A DNA stretch of 64,000 nt from Burkholderiaceae bacterium 26 (GTDB taxonomy: Bacteria; Pseudomonadota; Gammaproteobacteria; Burkholderiales; Burkholderiaceae): positions 124,001-188,000 of the forward strand of contig JYOB01000003.1 in the NCBI GenBank assembly GCA_000955795.1. Reading direction: 5' to 3'. Numbering within the stretch: the stretch's first letter is position 1; each line of letters begins with the position of its first letter. Made by a program: the position numbers and the translations under genes. Below are positions 1,053 to 62,624 of the stretch, piece after piece. Below the pieces are notes generated by a model that worked only from the letters and a program-made list of their open reading frames with translations, did not search any database and had not been told where the DNA came from.

Positions 1053-1754
1053 TCACTTCATCAGCGCGAGCATGTCGCGCACGAGCGGCAGTGTGACGGC
1101 GCGCTTGCGGGCCAGCGAATAGGTGTCGAGAGCGTCCAGCAGCGCCATCAGGCTCGGCATGTCGCGGTAGGAGTGCGTCACGAGCCACTGCGGCACATCA
1201 GCCGAAAGCTGCATGCCGCGTTCGCGGGCGGCTTGGCGCAGGGCTTCCACTTTGTCGGCGTCGGACAGTGGGCGCAGCCAGTAGACCAAGCCCCAGCCCA
1301 GGCGGGTGCGCAGGTCTTCACGCAGCGGCATCGCCATCGGCGCGGCGGCCCCGGAGATGGCGATGGCGGCATGCGGATGCGCGCGCACTTCATTGACGAG
1401 GTTGAACACGGCGATTTGCGCCCACTCATCCAGCCGCTCGGCGTCGTCGATGGTCCAGACGGTGATCGTCGGGTCGAATTCGAAGGCTTCGGGCGGGGCG
1501 TCGGGTTCCAGCGTGCGGACTTCGTAGCCGCCAGCCTCGGTCTGGGCGCAGATGGCTTGCAGCAGGTGGCTGCGGCCGCTGCCTTCTTCGCCCCAGAGGT
1601 AGACCAGGCGGTCTGTGGCGGTACCGTCCACCACCTGCGGAATCAGGGCGCGCAGGCGCAGCACCGCCTCTTCGTTGCCGGTGGCGACGAAGTTGTCGAA
1701 GGTCGGGGCGGGTGTCGCACCGAGTTCGAGCGGGAGCTGTTCGGGTGTGGCCAT
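1053..1754 (-). CDS. hda: DnaA regulatory inactivator Hda
   Basis: A 233-residue DnaA-paralogue AAA+ protein that, with the DNA-loaded sliding clamp, stimulates hydrolysis of DnaA-bound ATP and so limits re-initiation of replication. The N-terminus carries a clamp-binding-type motif, QLPLEL at residues 6-11. The P-loop is GEEGSGRSHLL at about residues 55-65, and the Walker B-like segment is TVWTIDDAERLD near 115. The C-terminal DNA-binding domain of DnaA is absent, as expected for Hda. It sits downstream of the AI-2E permease gene with a 48-base gap. The Hda role is from family knowledge; the gene could also be called a DnaA-like DnaA/Hda protein. Confidence 0.85.
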   Translation of the reverse strand: MATPEQLPLELGATPAPTFDNFVATGNEEAVLRLRALIPQVVDGTATDRLVYLWGEEGSGRSHLLQAICAQTEAGGYEVRTLEPDAPPEAFEFDPTITVWTIDDAERLDEWAQIAVFNLVNEVRAHPHAAIAISGAAAPMAMPLREDLRTRLGWGLVYWLRPLSDADKVEALRQAARERGMQLSADVPQWLVTHSYRDMPSLMALLDALDTYSLARKRAVTLPLVRDMLALMK

Positions 1755-50514: not shown

Positions 50515-51135
50515 TCAACCGCGCCGCGGCGGCAGGATCGCGTCGAGGTACGTGGTGGAGAGATGCTCCAGCTCGACCACGTAGTTATCGACCACGCCAC
50601 GGAAGTAGCGCCAGAAGATCAGCGTCGGGATGGCCACCACCAGGCCCAGCGCGGTGTTGTACAGCGCGACCGAGATGCCGTGCGCCAGCGCCTGCGGGTT
50701 TGTGCCCGCGGCGGTCTGGCTGCCGAAGATCTCGATCATGCCGACCACCGTGCCGAACAGGCCCATCAGCGGCGCCACCGAAGCGATCGTGCCGAGCGCG
50801 TTCAGATAGCGCTCCAGGCGGTGGGCAACATTCTGGCCGGCTTCTTCCACCACTTCCTTGGCGGCATCGCGCGTGGTGTTCGGATGCAGTACCACGTGGC
50901 GCAGCGCAGCGGCCAGCAGCCGGCCCAGCGGCGAGCCCTGTTCGAGCGTGTTCACCACTTCTGGCGTAGCACGGCGCTGATGCGCGACGGCCAGCGCCTC
51001 GTCATACACCTTGGGCGGAATGATCTTCTTGCGTTGCAGGGCGACGAAGCGTTCGATGATGAGCGCGAGTGCGAGCACCGAGGCGATCAATAGCGGCCAG
51101 ATTGGCCAGCCGGCGGCTTGAATGATGGAAAACAC
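50515..51135 (-). CDS. exbB: MotA/TolQ/ExbB proton channel family protein
   Basis: A 206-residue proton-channel protein with three transmembrane segments. The family signature is PLMGLFGTVVGMIEIFGS. The GTG at 51135 gives VFSIIQAAGWPIWPLLIAS; ATG alternatives downstream are internal. It is first of the exbB-exbD-lpxK-trm112-kdsB run. There is no tonB in the operon. Upstream lies the repeat-bearing space to xseA. Confidence 0.9.
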   Translation of the reverse strand: MFSIIQAAGWPIWPLLIASVLALALIIERFVALQRKKIIPPKVYDEALAVAHQRRATPEVVNTLEQGSPLGRLLAAALRHVVLHPNTTRDAAKEVVEEAGQNVAHRLERYLNALGTIASVAPLMGLFGTVVGMIEIFGSQTAAGTNPQALAHGISVALYNTALGLVVAIPTLIFWRYFRGVVDNYVVELEHLSTTYLDAILPPRRG

Positions 51136-51340
51136 TGGACAACCCGTTTTGTCGTTGTAGAAGGAGTGTGATTCTGTTCTGGTTTGCTGCTTATGCCGTC
51201 CGCGTCCCCGAACGCTGTCCGTTGCGGCAAAAACAGGCAGCACTCTAGCGCGTCGGACCTGCCACGGCAACACGATGGCGCAGCATCGCGACAGCCGCAG
51301 GCGATGGTCAACGCGCTGTCACGAAAGATGCTGACCGCAC

Positions 51341-51512
51341 AATCCACAGCCGCGCGGGACAGTCTTGTGGACGGGTTGTGGACATTGCCCGAACAAGCAA
51401 ACTAAGTGCTTGATCTGAAAGGGAGTTCGGTGCCGTGCTTAAAAAGTATGCAAACGGCATTTCGGTGGTCAATCCATGAACAAGCGCTGTGGGGCCCGGT
51501 AAAACGGCGAGT
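51341..51512. repeat. 172-bp repeat, copy 1
   Basis: Begins AATCCACAGC. The conserved core is GGGACAGTC followed by TGTGGAC at 51366, GGG, and TTGTGGACATTGCCCGAACA with a second box at 51377. It ends its conserved part with CTAAGTGCTTGATC and GTGCTTAAAAAG. CAAGCA and TGCTTG flank a 7-base loop, a possible stem. Conservation runs over about the first 105 bases; the rest is divergent. Confidence 0.9.
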
Positions 51513-51684
51513 AATCCCCACCGCTGCGGGACAGTTGTGTGGATGGGTTGTGGACATTGCCTCAACAAGCACGCTAAGTGTTTGATCCCAAAGGAAGTCC
51601 AATGGACTGCTTAAAAAAGAGGCAGCCAGGGTTTTGGCGTGGATCTGGAGAAGAATGAGGGCGGGCCTCGAAAAAGCGCAAGGA
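51513..51684. repeat. 172-bp repeat, copy 2
   Basis: Begins AATCCCCACC. Boxes TGTGGATGG (51538) and TGTGGACAT (51549) are spaced 11 bases apart, exactly as in copy 1. CAAGCAC and GTGTTTG could pair with one G.U, which is consistent with an RNA made from the plus strand. The tail reads CTGCTTAAAAAAG. Confidence 0.9.
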
Positions 51685-51859
51685 AATCCACACAGGCACG
51701 GGACAGTCCTGTGGACGGGTTGTGGACATTGCCCGGACAAGCACCTTAAGTGACTGATTCAAAAGAATGTTCGGTGGTGCGCCTAAAAATTGTGCAGTGG
51801 GCATTCGCACGAAAAAATGGGGATCCCGGCCGCGATCGTGTGAGAATCGACGGCCGATT
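51685..51859. repeat. 172-bp repeat, copy 3
   Basis: Begins AATCCACACAGG. Boxes TGTGGACGG (51710) and TGTGGACAT (51721) repeat the 11-base spacing. TCCACACAGG and CCTGTGGA form an inverted repeat with one bulge. The later stem is weaker: GTGACTG has two mismatches with CAAGCAC. It starts exactly 172 bases after copy 2. Confidence 0.9.
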
Positions 51860-51962
51860 TATCCACTGCCCAGGCGTCACATCACGGTTTTCCAGCGCCG
51901 CTGTGGATAACTTTGTGAACATCCTTGGGGCGCCTGCGCTAAATGCTTGACGCAGAACGAAA
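51860..51962. repeat. Diverged fourth copy with DnaA-box-like 9-mers
   Basis: Contains TATCCACT, then after a longer spacer CTGTGGATAACTTTGTGAAC and ACATCC, then GCTAAATGCTTGACG, all colinear with copies 1-3. TGTGGATAA at 51902-51910 is a perfect match to the E. coli DnaA box in reverse orientation; TTATCCACT at 51859-51867 matches at 8 of 9. The first-box spacing to copy 3 is 192 bases rather than 172. Confidence 0.65.
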
Positions 51963-52173
51963 TTACTTGCGCTGCTGAAATTTTGACATAGGTGGATTTT
52001 TCATAAGAATCAACAGGTTGCGTCAAAATGCAGAGAGCGCGTCACCCGACCGCTGTCAAGCTTGACAAGCAAGTTATGCTGTGGACAGGTAGCCCACCCA
52101 GCGTCGGTTGCCTCCCCTATTCAAGGTAGAAGTCGCCTCGAAGCCTCTTCGTTTTGCGCTCCTCGCACCACTT

Positions 52174-53619
52174 ATGACCCCGCCGCCGTCTTCCCGCCGC
52201 CCATTCTGGATGGATGCCACCGCACCCACCCCCGCATCCACACCTGAGATGTCGGCCGCACCAGCCGCTGCGTCTGCACCGAGTCGGGGCTCGCAGGACG
52301 TGCTCACCGTCAGCGACGTCAACCGCCGCATTGCGGGGCTGCTTGAACGCAACTTTCCGCTGGGTTGGGTGCGCGGCGAGATTTCGAACTTCACGCGTGC
52401 GGCCAGCGGACATTGGTATTTCTCGCTCAAGGATGCGGGCGCGCAGATTCGCTGCGTGATGTTCAAGGGCCGTAACCAATACGCCGATTTCACCCCGCGC
52501 GAAGGCGAGGCCGTCGAGGTGCGTGCGCTGGTCACGCTGTACGAGGCGCGCGGCGAATTGCAATTGAGCGTCGAAGCCATCCGCCGGGCGGGCCTGGGAA
52601 ATCTGTACGAAGCCTTCCTGCGGCTGAAAGCCGCGCTCGAGGCGCAAGGCCTGTTCGAAGCCGACCGCAAACGGCCCCTGCCGCGGCATCCGCGTGCGAT
52701 TGGCGTGGTGACGTCGCTGCAGGCGGCGGCCTTGCGCGACGTGCTGACCACGCTGCGCCGGCGCGCTCCGCATGTGCCGGTGGTGGTCTATCCCGTCCCG
52801 GTGCAGGGCGCCGGTGCGTCGGAGCGGATCGCGGCCATGCTGGAACGGGTCAATGCCCGGGCAGAGGTCGACGTCATCATTCTGTGCCGGGGCGGGGGCA
52901 GTATTGAAGACCTGTGGGCCTTCAACGAAGAACCGGTGGCGCGTGCGGTGGCCGCGTCGGACATTCCCATTGTGGCGGGCGTCGGGCATGAGACGGATGT
53001 GACCATCGTCGACTTTGTGGCCGACGTGCGGGCGCCCACGCCGACTGCGGCCGCCGAACTCGTCAGCCCCGACCGTGCCCGCATGCTGCGCGATGTGGGG
53101 CGCGACTGGGATGCGCTCTCCGCACAGTTCCGCCGCCAGCTCGATCGCCGCGCGCAGACCGTCGATTGGCTCGCGCGCCGCCTGCGCAGCCCGCAAGCGC
53201 AGATGCGCGAACGCCGCACGCAGCTCGCCCATCTGGAAGGTCGCCTGCGCTTTGCCCTGACCGGCCGCGTGCAGCGCGCGGAACACCTGCAGCGTTTGCT
53301 GACGATGCGCCTGGCCGCCGCCCGCCCCGACGCCACGCGAGAGCGCACGCGCCTGCAGCAAGCCGAAGCGACGCTGGCACGTGTCATGCGAGACAGGCTG
53401 GCTCGCGCGCAGGAGCGTCTGGCACGTCAGCACAGCGGGCTGGAACTGCTAGCGCCGCAGCGCACGCTGGAACGTGGTTATGCGGTGCTGCTCGATGCCA
53501 AGGGCCAAGCCATCCGCGATCCGAATGCCTTGCATGCCCGGGCACGTATCGAGGCCCGGCTGGCGCAAGGCACGGCTGACATCGAAATTGCCCAGGTGCA
53601 AACCAAGCTCGAACTGTGA
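52174..53619 (+). CDS. xseA: Exodeoxyribonuclease VII large subunit XseA
   Basis: A 481-residue large subunit of a single-strand-specific nuclease. The N-terminal OB domain ([41 protein letters not shown]) is followed by the catalytic domain with [21 protein letters not shown] and [22 protein letters not shown]. The C-terminal long coiled-coil region (residues about 310-420) precedes [18 protein letters not shown] 52174 is used; upstream 52108 would add 22 residues. xseB is not in the window. Confidence 0.94.
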
Positions 53620-62339: not shown

Positions 62340-62624
62340 TTACTTCTTCTTGTTCACGGCGTCCTTGAAGCCCTTGCCAGCCGTGAACTTCACGGTCTTG
62401 GTTGCCGGGATCTTGATGGCTTCGCCGGTGCGCGGGTTGCGGCCCGTGCGTGCTGCGCGCTTGCCCGACGAGAACGAACCGAAGCCAACCAGCGTGATGG
62501 TGCCGCCCTTGGCGACGGTCTTCTTGATGTTTTCCAGCGCGGAGTTCAGCGCGCGCTCGGCGGCGGCGTTGCTCAGTTCAGCGTCTTTCGCAATGGCGGC
62601 TACGAGTTCGGATTTGGTCGTCAT
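62340..62624 (-). CDS. hupB: DNA-binding protein HU
   Basis: A 94-residue nucleoid protein. The N-terminus reads [21 protein letters not shown], and the DNA-binding arm is [20 protein letters not shown] followed by GEAIKIPA and the end [14 protein letters not shown] 62624 is used, with GGGGAACTGAC upstream. It is convergent with hutD across a terminator. Confidence 0.95.

What the first reader, a model, noticed from the sequence alone, without database searches (positions are those of the whole stretch)
51341..51962. Three colinear 172-bp repeats plus a diverged fourth copy between exbB and xseA
Directly seen: copies start at 51341, 51513 and 51685, spaced exactly 172 bases each, without indels over their conserved part of about 105 bases. 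A fourth copy at 51860 keeps the same order of motifs with a longer spacer. Conserved blocks are GGGACAGTC, TGTGGAC-GGG-TTGTGGACATTG, CAAGCA, (C/T)TAA(G/A)TG and CTTAAAAA. Because 172 is not a multiple of three, the protein-level match of the overlapping ORFs shifts frame at each copy, so selection acts on DNA or RNA. I do not recognise the element.
Basis: seen in the sequence. Interest (0 to 1): 0.8.

Follow-up and report, generated by a model that had tools for sequence, protein, structure and literature searches.

The report
Tandem DARS-like DnaA control array
The repeats look like neither a gene nor an RNA but like copies of a DNA switch that probably resets DnaA, the protein that starts chromosome copying; the switch sits in front of xseA in most of the related bacteria examined, and here it has been multiplied into a strictly spaced row.

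Summary
In detail: three units 172 bp apart plus a related fourth. All 16 genus genomes searched match the block, two partially. Periods stay at 171-173 bp in 15 loci although spacers are 60% identical against 91% in the cores. Overlapping ORFs are not conserved, no Rfam family matches, no pair covaries.

Unit 4 is the older part. It has the E. coli DARS1/DARS2 core geometry: DnaA box I forward, II reverse at +14, III reverse at +26. The core (up to 3 of 16 mismatches) lies upstream of xseA in 34 of 35 betaproteobacterial loci and 0 of 44 others. An IHF site (up to 1 mismatch) lies 91-96 bp after box III in 39 of 51 such cores; shuffles 0.75%. The own genome has a second copy between hemE and priA.

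Units 1-3 are amplified DnaA-IHF modules. Best reading: a DARS2-type DnaA-reactivating locus with a tandem array, a new variant of a known kind. Binding and nucleotide exchange are inferred, not shown. A datA-like reading of the array remains open.

The parts
51340..51451 (+). Unit 1: box I CAATCCACA 51340-51348 (forward); weak box II' position 51354-51362 (GCGGGACAG); reverse boxes TGTGGACGG 51366-51374 and TGTGGACAT 51377-51385; reverse IHF-like site 51403-51415 (1 mismatch); Fis-consensus match 51437-51451
   Evidence: Box, IHF and Fis consensi from PMC4585315 (passages). The Fis match is weak evidence: 106 hits, both strands counted, in the window.
51512..51623 (+). Unit 2, 172 bp on: box I position reads TAATCCCCA in this genome; reverse boxes 51538-51546 and 51549-51557; IHF-like 51575-51587 (1 mismatch); Fis-like at 51609-51623 (1 mismatch, by eye)
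51684..51795 (+). Unit 3, 172 bp on: box I AAATCCACA 51684-51692; reverse boxes 51710-51718 and 51721-51729; IHF-like 51747-51759 (1 mismatch); Fis consensus 51781-51795
51859..51867 (+). Fourth forward DnaA box TTATCCACT, 175 bp after the start of box I of unit 3; the word GATTTATCCAC is found at this place, to within 1 bp, in 15 of 15 genus loci that reach it
51888..51922 (+). DARS-type core (unit 4): degenerate box I TTTTCCAGC 51888-51896, box II TGTGGATAA 51902-51910 (reverse, +14), box III TGTGAACAT 51914-51922 (reverse, +12)
   Evidence: same spacing as the E. coli DARS2 core and the bioD-uvrB core
52008..52020 (+). Perfect IHF consensus AATCAACAGGTTG, 94 bp after the start of box III
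   Evidence: one of two perfect IHF-consensus hits in the window
52080..52088 (-). Distal DnaA-like box TGTGGACAG, 178 bp after the start of box II, in front of xseA
   Evidence: a TGTGGA 173-190 bp after box II in 37 of 51 cores, shuffles 24 of 5100
52053..52069 (.). Conserved palindrome CTGTCAAGCTTGACAAG, role unknown
   Evidence: 52053-52092 is 93.7% identical across 14 genus loci
50515..51273 (-). exbB/tolQ-like gene on the left (ORF; the true start is probably nearer 51140)
   Evidence: TolQ model 86.8 bits, below its cut-off of 221
52174..53619 (+). xseA, exodeoxyribonuclease VII large subunit (start codon inferred)
   Evidence: TIGR00237, 477.9 bits, cut-off 180
1065..1739 (-). hda, DnaA regulatory inactivator: the partner that makes ADP-DnaA in E. 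coli, in the same window
   Evidence: TIGR03420, 249.5 bits, cut-off 194.8

Best explanation
The locus is a cis-acting DnaA-control element of the DARS2 type (DnaA-reactivating sequence). Unit 4 is its conserved core: three DnaA boxes with box I facing boxes II and III, an IHF site 94 bp on and a distal DnaA box. Units 1-3 are tandem copies of a related DnaA-IHF module held at a fixed 172-bp phase. Proposed working: ADP-DnaA, made with Hda after initiation, assembles head-to-head on the core; IHF (perhaps with Fis) bends the DNA and brings boxes together; ADP leaves; apo-DnaA is released, binds ATP and can fire oriC again. The extra units would raise the local capacity or sharpen the timing. 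Shown here: anatomy, spacing, conservation, lack of a coding or RNA signal, a second copy between hemE and priA, presence of dnaA, hda, ihfA and a Fis homologue. Inferred: DnaA and IHF binding, nucleotide exchange, role of the array.
For: Core geometry equals that of E. coli DARS2 (boxes at 2135 forward, 2149 and 2161 reverse in L145; a DARS2 deletion primer quoted in PMC4585315, compared by eye, reads the sequence just beside it) and of the bioD-uvrB site (159, 173, 185). Literature, passages only: box I opposes II and III, same spacing in DARS1 and DARS2 (PMC5742627); head-to-head ADP-DnaA (PMC8682772). IHF (up to 1 mismatch) at +91 to +96 in 39 of 51, shuffles 76 of 10,200. Distal box in 37 of 51, shuffles 24 of 5100. 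Genome-wide the core is found in 24 of 26 genomes (up to 1 mismatch) and, exact, in 76 of 120 and 44 of 75; the backwards control pattern gives none in any of these. Second copy between hemE and priA in the own genome, IHF at +94 without mismatch. Of 30 loci handed out, the module points towards xseA in 16 of 16 and away from priA in 9 of 9, so its direction does not follow the gene behind it. Tandem units recur elsewhere: Undibacterium has five cores in a row, genome G017 three units, G031 three cores. Hda, Fis homologue and IHF-alpha genes present.
Against: No binding or activity data. Box I of the window's own core is degenerate (TTTTCCAGC, 2 of 9 off consensus by eye). Boxes in units 1-3 are two or more mismatches from the consensus and their spacing differs from DARS (box I to the first clear reverse box 26, then 11). 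The IHF distance (+94) differs from E. coli DARS2 (+67 and +83). Fis sites are not convincing. 12 of 51 cores lack the IHF site and 14 of 51 the distal box. Position on the chromosome is not constant: 28-29% of the chromosome from dnaA in four genus genomes with a one-contig chromosome, but 8%, 27% and 36% in three genomes of other families. None of 19 class loci with an exact core had UvrB or MutH, the E. coli neighbours, beside it. The array's order of boxes around IHF also fits datA.
Confidence: 0.62

Rival explanations
1. [quoted passage not shown]
For: The E. coli region at 4.39 Mb where datA lies has a forward box (1244), reverse box (1292), reverse IHF (1309), forward box (1406), reverse box (1418) (L147). 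The array repeats the same order and orientation: forward box, reverse boxes, reverse IHF, next forward box; period 172 against 162 bp. Spacing is held at 171-173 bp over diverged spacers, and datA is reported to depend on box-IHF spacing (PMC4585315 passages).
Against: Undibacterium units carry the full DARS core and their period varies (139 to 192 bp). E. coli datA lies near oriC (PMC5742627), this locus 28-29% of the chromosome away from dnaA. The array sits beside a DARS-type anchor. Which of the E. coli boxes are the numbered datA boxes was not checked; further boxes lie at 1177, 1499 and 1789.
Confidence: 0.2
2. A passive DnaA sink: a box cluster that titrates DnaA without changing its nucleotide.
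For: 10 of 32 TCCACA/TGTGGA words of the window lie in 781 bp; box clusters elsewhere act on initiation (B. subtilis and Streptomyces, named in PMC5742627).
Against: Titration needs no fixed geometry, yet I-II-III spacing, IHF at +93/94 and the distal box are held across families; the boxes in units 1-3 are not consensus boxes.
Confidence: 0.1
3. A DnaA- and IHF-controlled promoter region for xseA or exbB.
For: Box just before xseA in 37 of 51; a promoter-like TTGACA-16-AAGAAT at 51983-52010 towards xseA and one on the other strand at 51472-51445 (2 found, 0.3 expected from shuffles); some outgroups read TATAA next to the IHF site.
Against: The same core-IHF module points away from priA in 9 of 9 priA loci handed out and lies near yifB or other genes in some genomes, so it does not follow one gene or direction. 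Units 1-3 end about 380 bp or more before the xseA start.
Confidence: 0.06
4. A small-RNA array or another transcribed structured element.
Against: No Rfam match, 0 of 10 pairs with a compensatory change in 26 units, the one terminator-like site found lies outside the units and shuffles give more, conserved words are protein-binding consensi.
Confidence: 0.02

Closest known systems
E. coli DARS2 (rppH-mutH intergenic)
   Same: Three-box core with box I facing II and III, start spacings +14 and +12; IHF sites downstream of the core; intergenic, beside a DNA-repair gene; further DnaA boxes.
   Different: IHF at +67/+83 (two one-mismatch sites 3 bp apart, as PMC4245941 describes IBS1-2) against +94; Fis part not demonstrated; at xseA instead of mutH; E. 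coli DARS2 has one core, here three more modules stand in tandem; box I of the own core degenerate.
E. coli DARS1 (assigned here to the bioD-uvrB core)
   Same: Same three-box spacing.
   Different: DARS1 is 101 bp, a core and about 50 bp (PMC5742627 passages); here an IHF site at fixed distance and an array.
E. coli datA
   Same: Order and orientation of boxes around a reverse IHF site resembles the array; 172 bp between forward boxes against 162.
   Different: DARS-type core present; far from oriC; three tandem copies.
DnaA-box cluster upstream of dnaA in the same genome (presumed oriC)
   Same: DnaA boxes in both orientations.
   Different: Box spacing there is 20 and 11 rather than 14 and 12; dnaA is about 1 Mb from this locus in four genus genomes with a one-contig chromosome.

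Membership tests
DARS (DnaA-reactivating sequence) | Core of three DnaA boxes, I opposite to II and III, start spacing +14/+12 | tested here: met
   Unit 4: boxes II and III and the place of box I exact; box I itself (TTTTCCAGC) 2 of 9 off consensus. 34 of 35 betaproteobacterial xseA loci within 3 of 16 mismatches
DARS (DnaA-reactivating sequence) | Stimulates ADP release from DnaA | not testable with these tools
   Needs purified DnaA
DARS2 | IHF sites at a set distance downstream of the core | tested here: met
   Perfect consensus at +94; 39 of 51 loci at +91 to +96 with up to 1 mismatch; the distance differs from E. coli
DARS2 | Fis sites FBS2-3 | tested here: inconclusive
   Fis-consensus matches in units 1 and 3, but 106 hits in the window; Fis homologue present, 38% over 77 aa
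DARS2 | Conserved place between oriC and terminus | tested here: inconclusive
   28-29% of the chromosome from dnaA in 4 genus genomes with a one-contig chromosome; 8%, 27% and 36% in three other genomes
datA | DnaA boxes 2 and 3 flanking an IHF site | tested here: inconclusive
   The array has the order and orientation; distances differ by about one helical turn
[quoted passage not shown]
   Needs purified proteins
oriC | Next to dnaA | tested here: not met
   dnaA about 1 Mb away
oriC | DNA unwinding element | not tested
   Not sought
Rfam RNA families | Match at gathering score, covarying structure | tested here: not met

The most novel reading that the evidence does not exclude
A compound DnaA clock locus: a DARS2-type core that recharges DnaA, fused to a tandem, phase-locked array of datA-like box-IHF-box modules that discharge it or tune it, so that one site sets the ATP/ADP state of DnaA in both directions. 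Copy number of the array (two or three units in this genus, five or more cores in Undibacterium) would be an evolvable setting of initiation timing.
Probability: 0.2. Interest if true: 0.87.

Novelty: new variant of a known kind. Interest (0 to 1): 0.7.

Why it matters
DnaA reactivation by DARS has been worked out in E. coli; PMC4245941 and PMC8682772 (passages) describe the DARS2 core as conserved in gamma-proteobacteria related to E. coli, while two reviews say more loosely that similar sequences occur in beta- or gamma-proteobacteria or in many proteobacteria (PMC5742627, PMC10380432). Here a sequence-only rule (three boxes at 0/+14/+26, IHF at +93/94 from box III, distal box about 177 bp after box II) points to candidate sites at xseA and between hemE and priA in Betaproteobacteria, and at priA in some other families of the same class. 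It makes the question of how initiation is reset outside E. coli directly testable, and the tandem array offers a natural dosage series of such a switch.

Tried and rejected
RNA element: rejected. Coding repeats: rejected, ORFs open in only 4 to 8 of 14 aligned genomes. Chromosomal origin: rejected, dnaA far away. The first alignment mixed strands and was redone. IHF reading of the TAAGTGCTTGAT block: kept for the tandem units (14 of 64 cores listed, 0-1 mismatch, all at +25/26; shuffles 33 of 3200) but most anchors lack it; in them the IHF site is the one at +93/94. Fis sites: left inconclusive. XseA relatives from genome contigs held no Ralstonia or Cupriavidus among the 80 kept of 585. Betaproteobacterial or not was assigned from record titles and my knowledge of the genera. 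In one search, of those 80 loci, L104 was dropped (88 bp upstream only); L048 and L050, titled Gammaproteobacteria MAGs, were put with the betaproteobacterial set after their upstream sequences had been seen; without them it is 32 of 33. L141 was mis-anchored (counted there as a miss) and left out; one search finds an exact core there. Six of 57 loci had no core within 3 mismatches (L058, L124, L125, L136, L140, L142). Results against: no good core at xseA in G021, G022, G023, G027, G032 (best 4 to 7 mismatches); no XseA match in G018, G020, G030; 8 of 26 genomes have no core within 1 mismatch at xseA; 44 of 120 order genomes and 31 of 75 class genomes have no exact core; of 23 cores at other places 14 have IHF at +92 to +94, the megaplasmid site counted twice; 13 of 19 class loci have none of the eight test proteins beside them.

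Literature: papers seen as passages only: PMC4585315, PMC5742627, PMC4245941, PMC8682772, PMC10380432, PMC6090056; others as search listings. The founding DARS paper (PubMed 19401329) is not held and supplements could not be opened, so earlier mention of these loci there cannot be excluded. No paper on DARS at xseA was seen in the listings for DnaA-reactivating sequence+DARS2+IHF, Ralstonia/DnaA box/datA/DARS (any two), xseA+DARS, DARS2+Burkholderia, DARS+DnaA+beta-proteobacteria, DnaA box+xseA, DARS1+DARS2+conserved+species, DnaA+DARS+ADP dissociation+head-to-head, DnaA+IHF+Ralstonia+replication initiation; no search named priA or hemE.

Full report
The observation. Three gap-free copies start at 51341, 51513 and 51685, 172 bp apart, 75-79% identical over 121 nt. 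BLASTN with the 656-bp block gives one match in each of 16 genus genomes searched (own included): 14 nearly full length, two partial (G013 lacks a unit, G007 ends at a contig edge); and none in 25 genomes of other genera and families. In the 15 genus loci that span it, unit periods are 171-173 bp; one locus has two units. Conservation is sharply partitioned over 14 loci: unit cores 91% and unit 4 93% identical, spacers between units 60%, close to xseA third codon positions (67%, only 11 sites). Spacer sequence drifts while its length hardly does.

Not protein, not RNA. The five overlapping ORFs are open and in frame in 4, 7, 4, 7 and 8 of 14 aligned genomes. No Rfam family reaches its gathering score anywhere in the window. 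RNAalifold on 26 units predicts 10 pairs, none with a compensatory change.

What the words are. With consensi quoted in PMC4585315 (passages: DnaA TTWTNCACA, IHF WATCAANNNNTTR, Fis GNNYANNNNNTRNNC), the blocks resolve into binding-site-like words. Each of units 1-3 has a forward box (AATCCACA; changed in unit 2 of this genome), two reverse boxes 26 and 37 bp after its start, a reverse IHF-like site 26 bp after the last box (one mismatch) and an A-tract that in units 1 and 3 matches the Fis consensus. The GGGACAG block falls where a DARS core has box II (+14). I read it as a weak box; genome G017 has GGGATAG there in one unit. Unit 4 has TTATCCACT, then TTTTCCAGC, TGTGGATAA and TGTGAACAT at 0, +14, +26, a perfect IHF site 94 bp after box III and a distal TGTGGACAG.

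The comparison with E. coli. In MG1655 DNA the rppH-mutH intergenic region reads TTATTCACC forward, then reverse boxes at +14 and +26. A primer for deleting DARS2 boxes I-III, quoted in PMC4585315, reads the sequence immediately beside it (compared by eye), so this is the DARS2 core. Two one-mismatch IHF sites 3 bp apart follow at +67 and +83, as PMC4245941 describes IBS1-2. bioD-uvrB has the same three-box spacing; its name DARS1 is assigned here from the geometry and from the uvrB location given in PMC6090056 (passage). That box I opposes II and III, and that the two cores share their spacing, is stated in PMC5742627.

Class-wide conservation at xseA. Among 26 genomes, 18 have a core within 1 mismatch less than 500 bp upstream of xseA and 8 do not (6 and 10 for the genus). 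IHF sites (at most 1 mismatch) lie at +91 to +96 from box III in 39 of 51 cores, peaking at 93-94, while all other offsets from +20 to +139 together give 10 hits; shuffles 76 of 10,200. A TGTGGA lies 173-190 bp after box II in 37 of 51; shuffles 24 of 5100.

Elsewhere in the genomes. The core, exact, occurs in 76 of 120 evenly drawn order genomes and 44 of 75 class genomes; the pattern read backwards in none of them. Of 30 order loci handed out, 16 are beside xseA and a 17th ends at exbB, 9 are beside priA (8 with hemE), 1 beside yifB, 3 beside none of the five test proteins; 22 of 30 have an IHF site (up to 1 mismatch) at +90 to +95. Of 19 class loci, 6 are beside priA, none beside XseA, UvrB or MutH, and 13 have IHF at +93 to +95. 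The own genome has a core with 1 mismatch between hemE and priA with a perfect IHF site at +94. In one search the module points towards xseA in 16 of 16 loci and away from priA in 9 of 9, which speaks against a plain promoter element.

The array. Tandem copies recur: G017 three units and the anchor, G019 one, G031 three cores, Undibacterium five cores found by the genome-wide search with spacings 179, 192, 170 and 139, and a weaker one (3 mismatches) upstream. Those units, and units 1 and 3 here, carry the IHF site in reverse at +25/26: 14 of 64 cores listed have it at 0-1 mismatch, against 33 of 3200 shuffles. The Undibacterium core nearest xseA is an exception: 2 mismatches there, and a perfect site at +92.

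Partners. dnaA, hda in this very window, ihfA and a Fis homologue are present, so a cycle of inactivation and reactivation is plausible.

How it most likely works. Hda turns ATP-DnaA into ADP-DnaA after initiation (established for E. coli). ADP-DnaA assembles on the I-II-III core, box I facing II and III, as described for DARS; IHF bound 94 bp on bends the DNA so that the distal box or the array can join; ADP is released. The array would multiply assembly sites in a fixed phase. Binding and exchange are inferred. The main rival is that the array is datA-like: forward box, reverse box, reverse IHF, forward box, with a period of 172 against 162 bp in the E. coli datA region.

Membership. The core and IHF features of DARS2 are met by sequence, Fis is open, activity untested. 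I therefore call the anchor DARS2-like and the tandem array a new variant. The place is 28-29% of the chromosome from dnaA in four genus genomes with a one-contig chromosome but 8 to 36% in three others.

Novelty. Reviews say DARS-like sequences occur in many proteobacteria (PMC10380432) and one names beta- or gamma-proteobacteria (PMC5742627), whereas the primary texts speak of gamma-proteobacteria. I saw no text placing DARS at xseA or describing tandem DARS modules, within the searches named under Tried and rejected; none of them asked for priA or hemE, and supplements and the 2009 paper were out of reach.

Noticed in passing
window 1065-1739 (-): hda, the DnaA inactivator, lies in the same 64-kb window as the array, about 50 kb away.
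   Followed up: partly
L192:2501-2527 (G000:C6, between hemE and priA): Second DARS-like core of the own genome (1 mismatch) with a perfect IHF site at +94; the corresponding core lies 8-9% of the chromosome from dnaA in four genus genomes with a one-contig chromosome.
   Followed up: yes
L193:3562-3588 and L210:2993-3019: An exact core (TGCACAGAACATGTGGATAAGTCTGTG), identical in 5 of 5 genus genomes, sits on another contig than dnaA, beside a GGDEF/EAL gene, with no IHF site from +15 to +129.
   Followed up: partly
window 52053-52069: Conserved palindrome CTGTCAAGCTTGACAAG between the IHF site and the distal box; no explanation found.
   Followed up: no
L015 (genome G013): One unit fewer than in the other spanning loci while the rest of the block is kept; not tested whether by loss.
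   Followed up: no
L204, L206: In two genomes of the family the core with IHF at +93/94 (1 mismatch) lies downstream of yifB/comM, a third kind of place.
   Followed up: partly
window 62346-62618 (-): HU/IHF-beta-like gene, below the curated cut-offs of all four matching models.
   Followed up: no
L208:2344-3248: Three cores in a row near priA in genome G033, only the first with an IHF site at +93.
   Followed up: no
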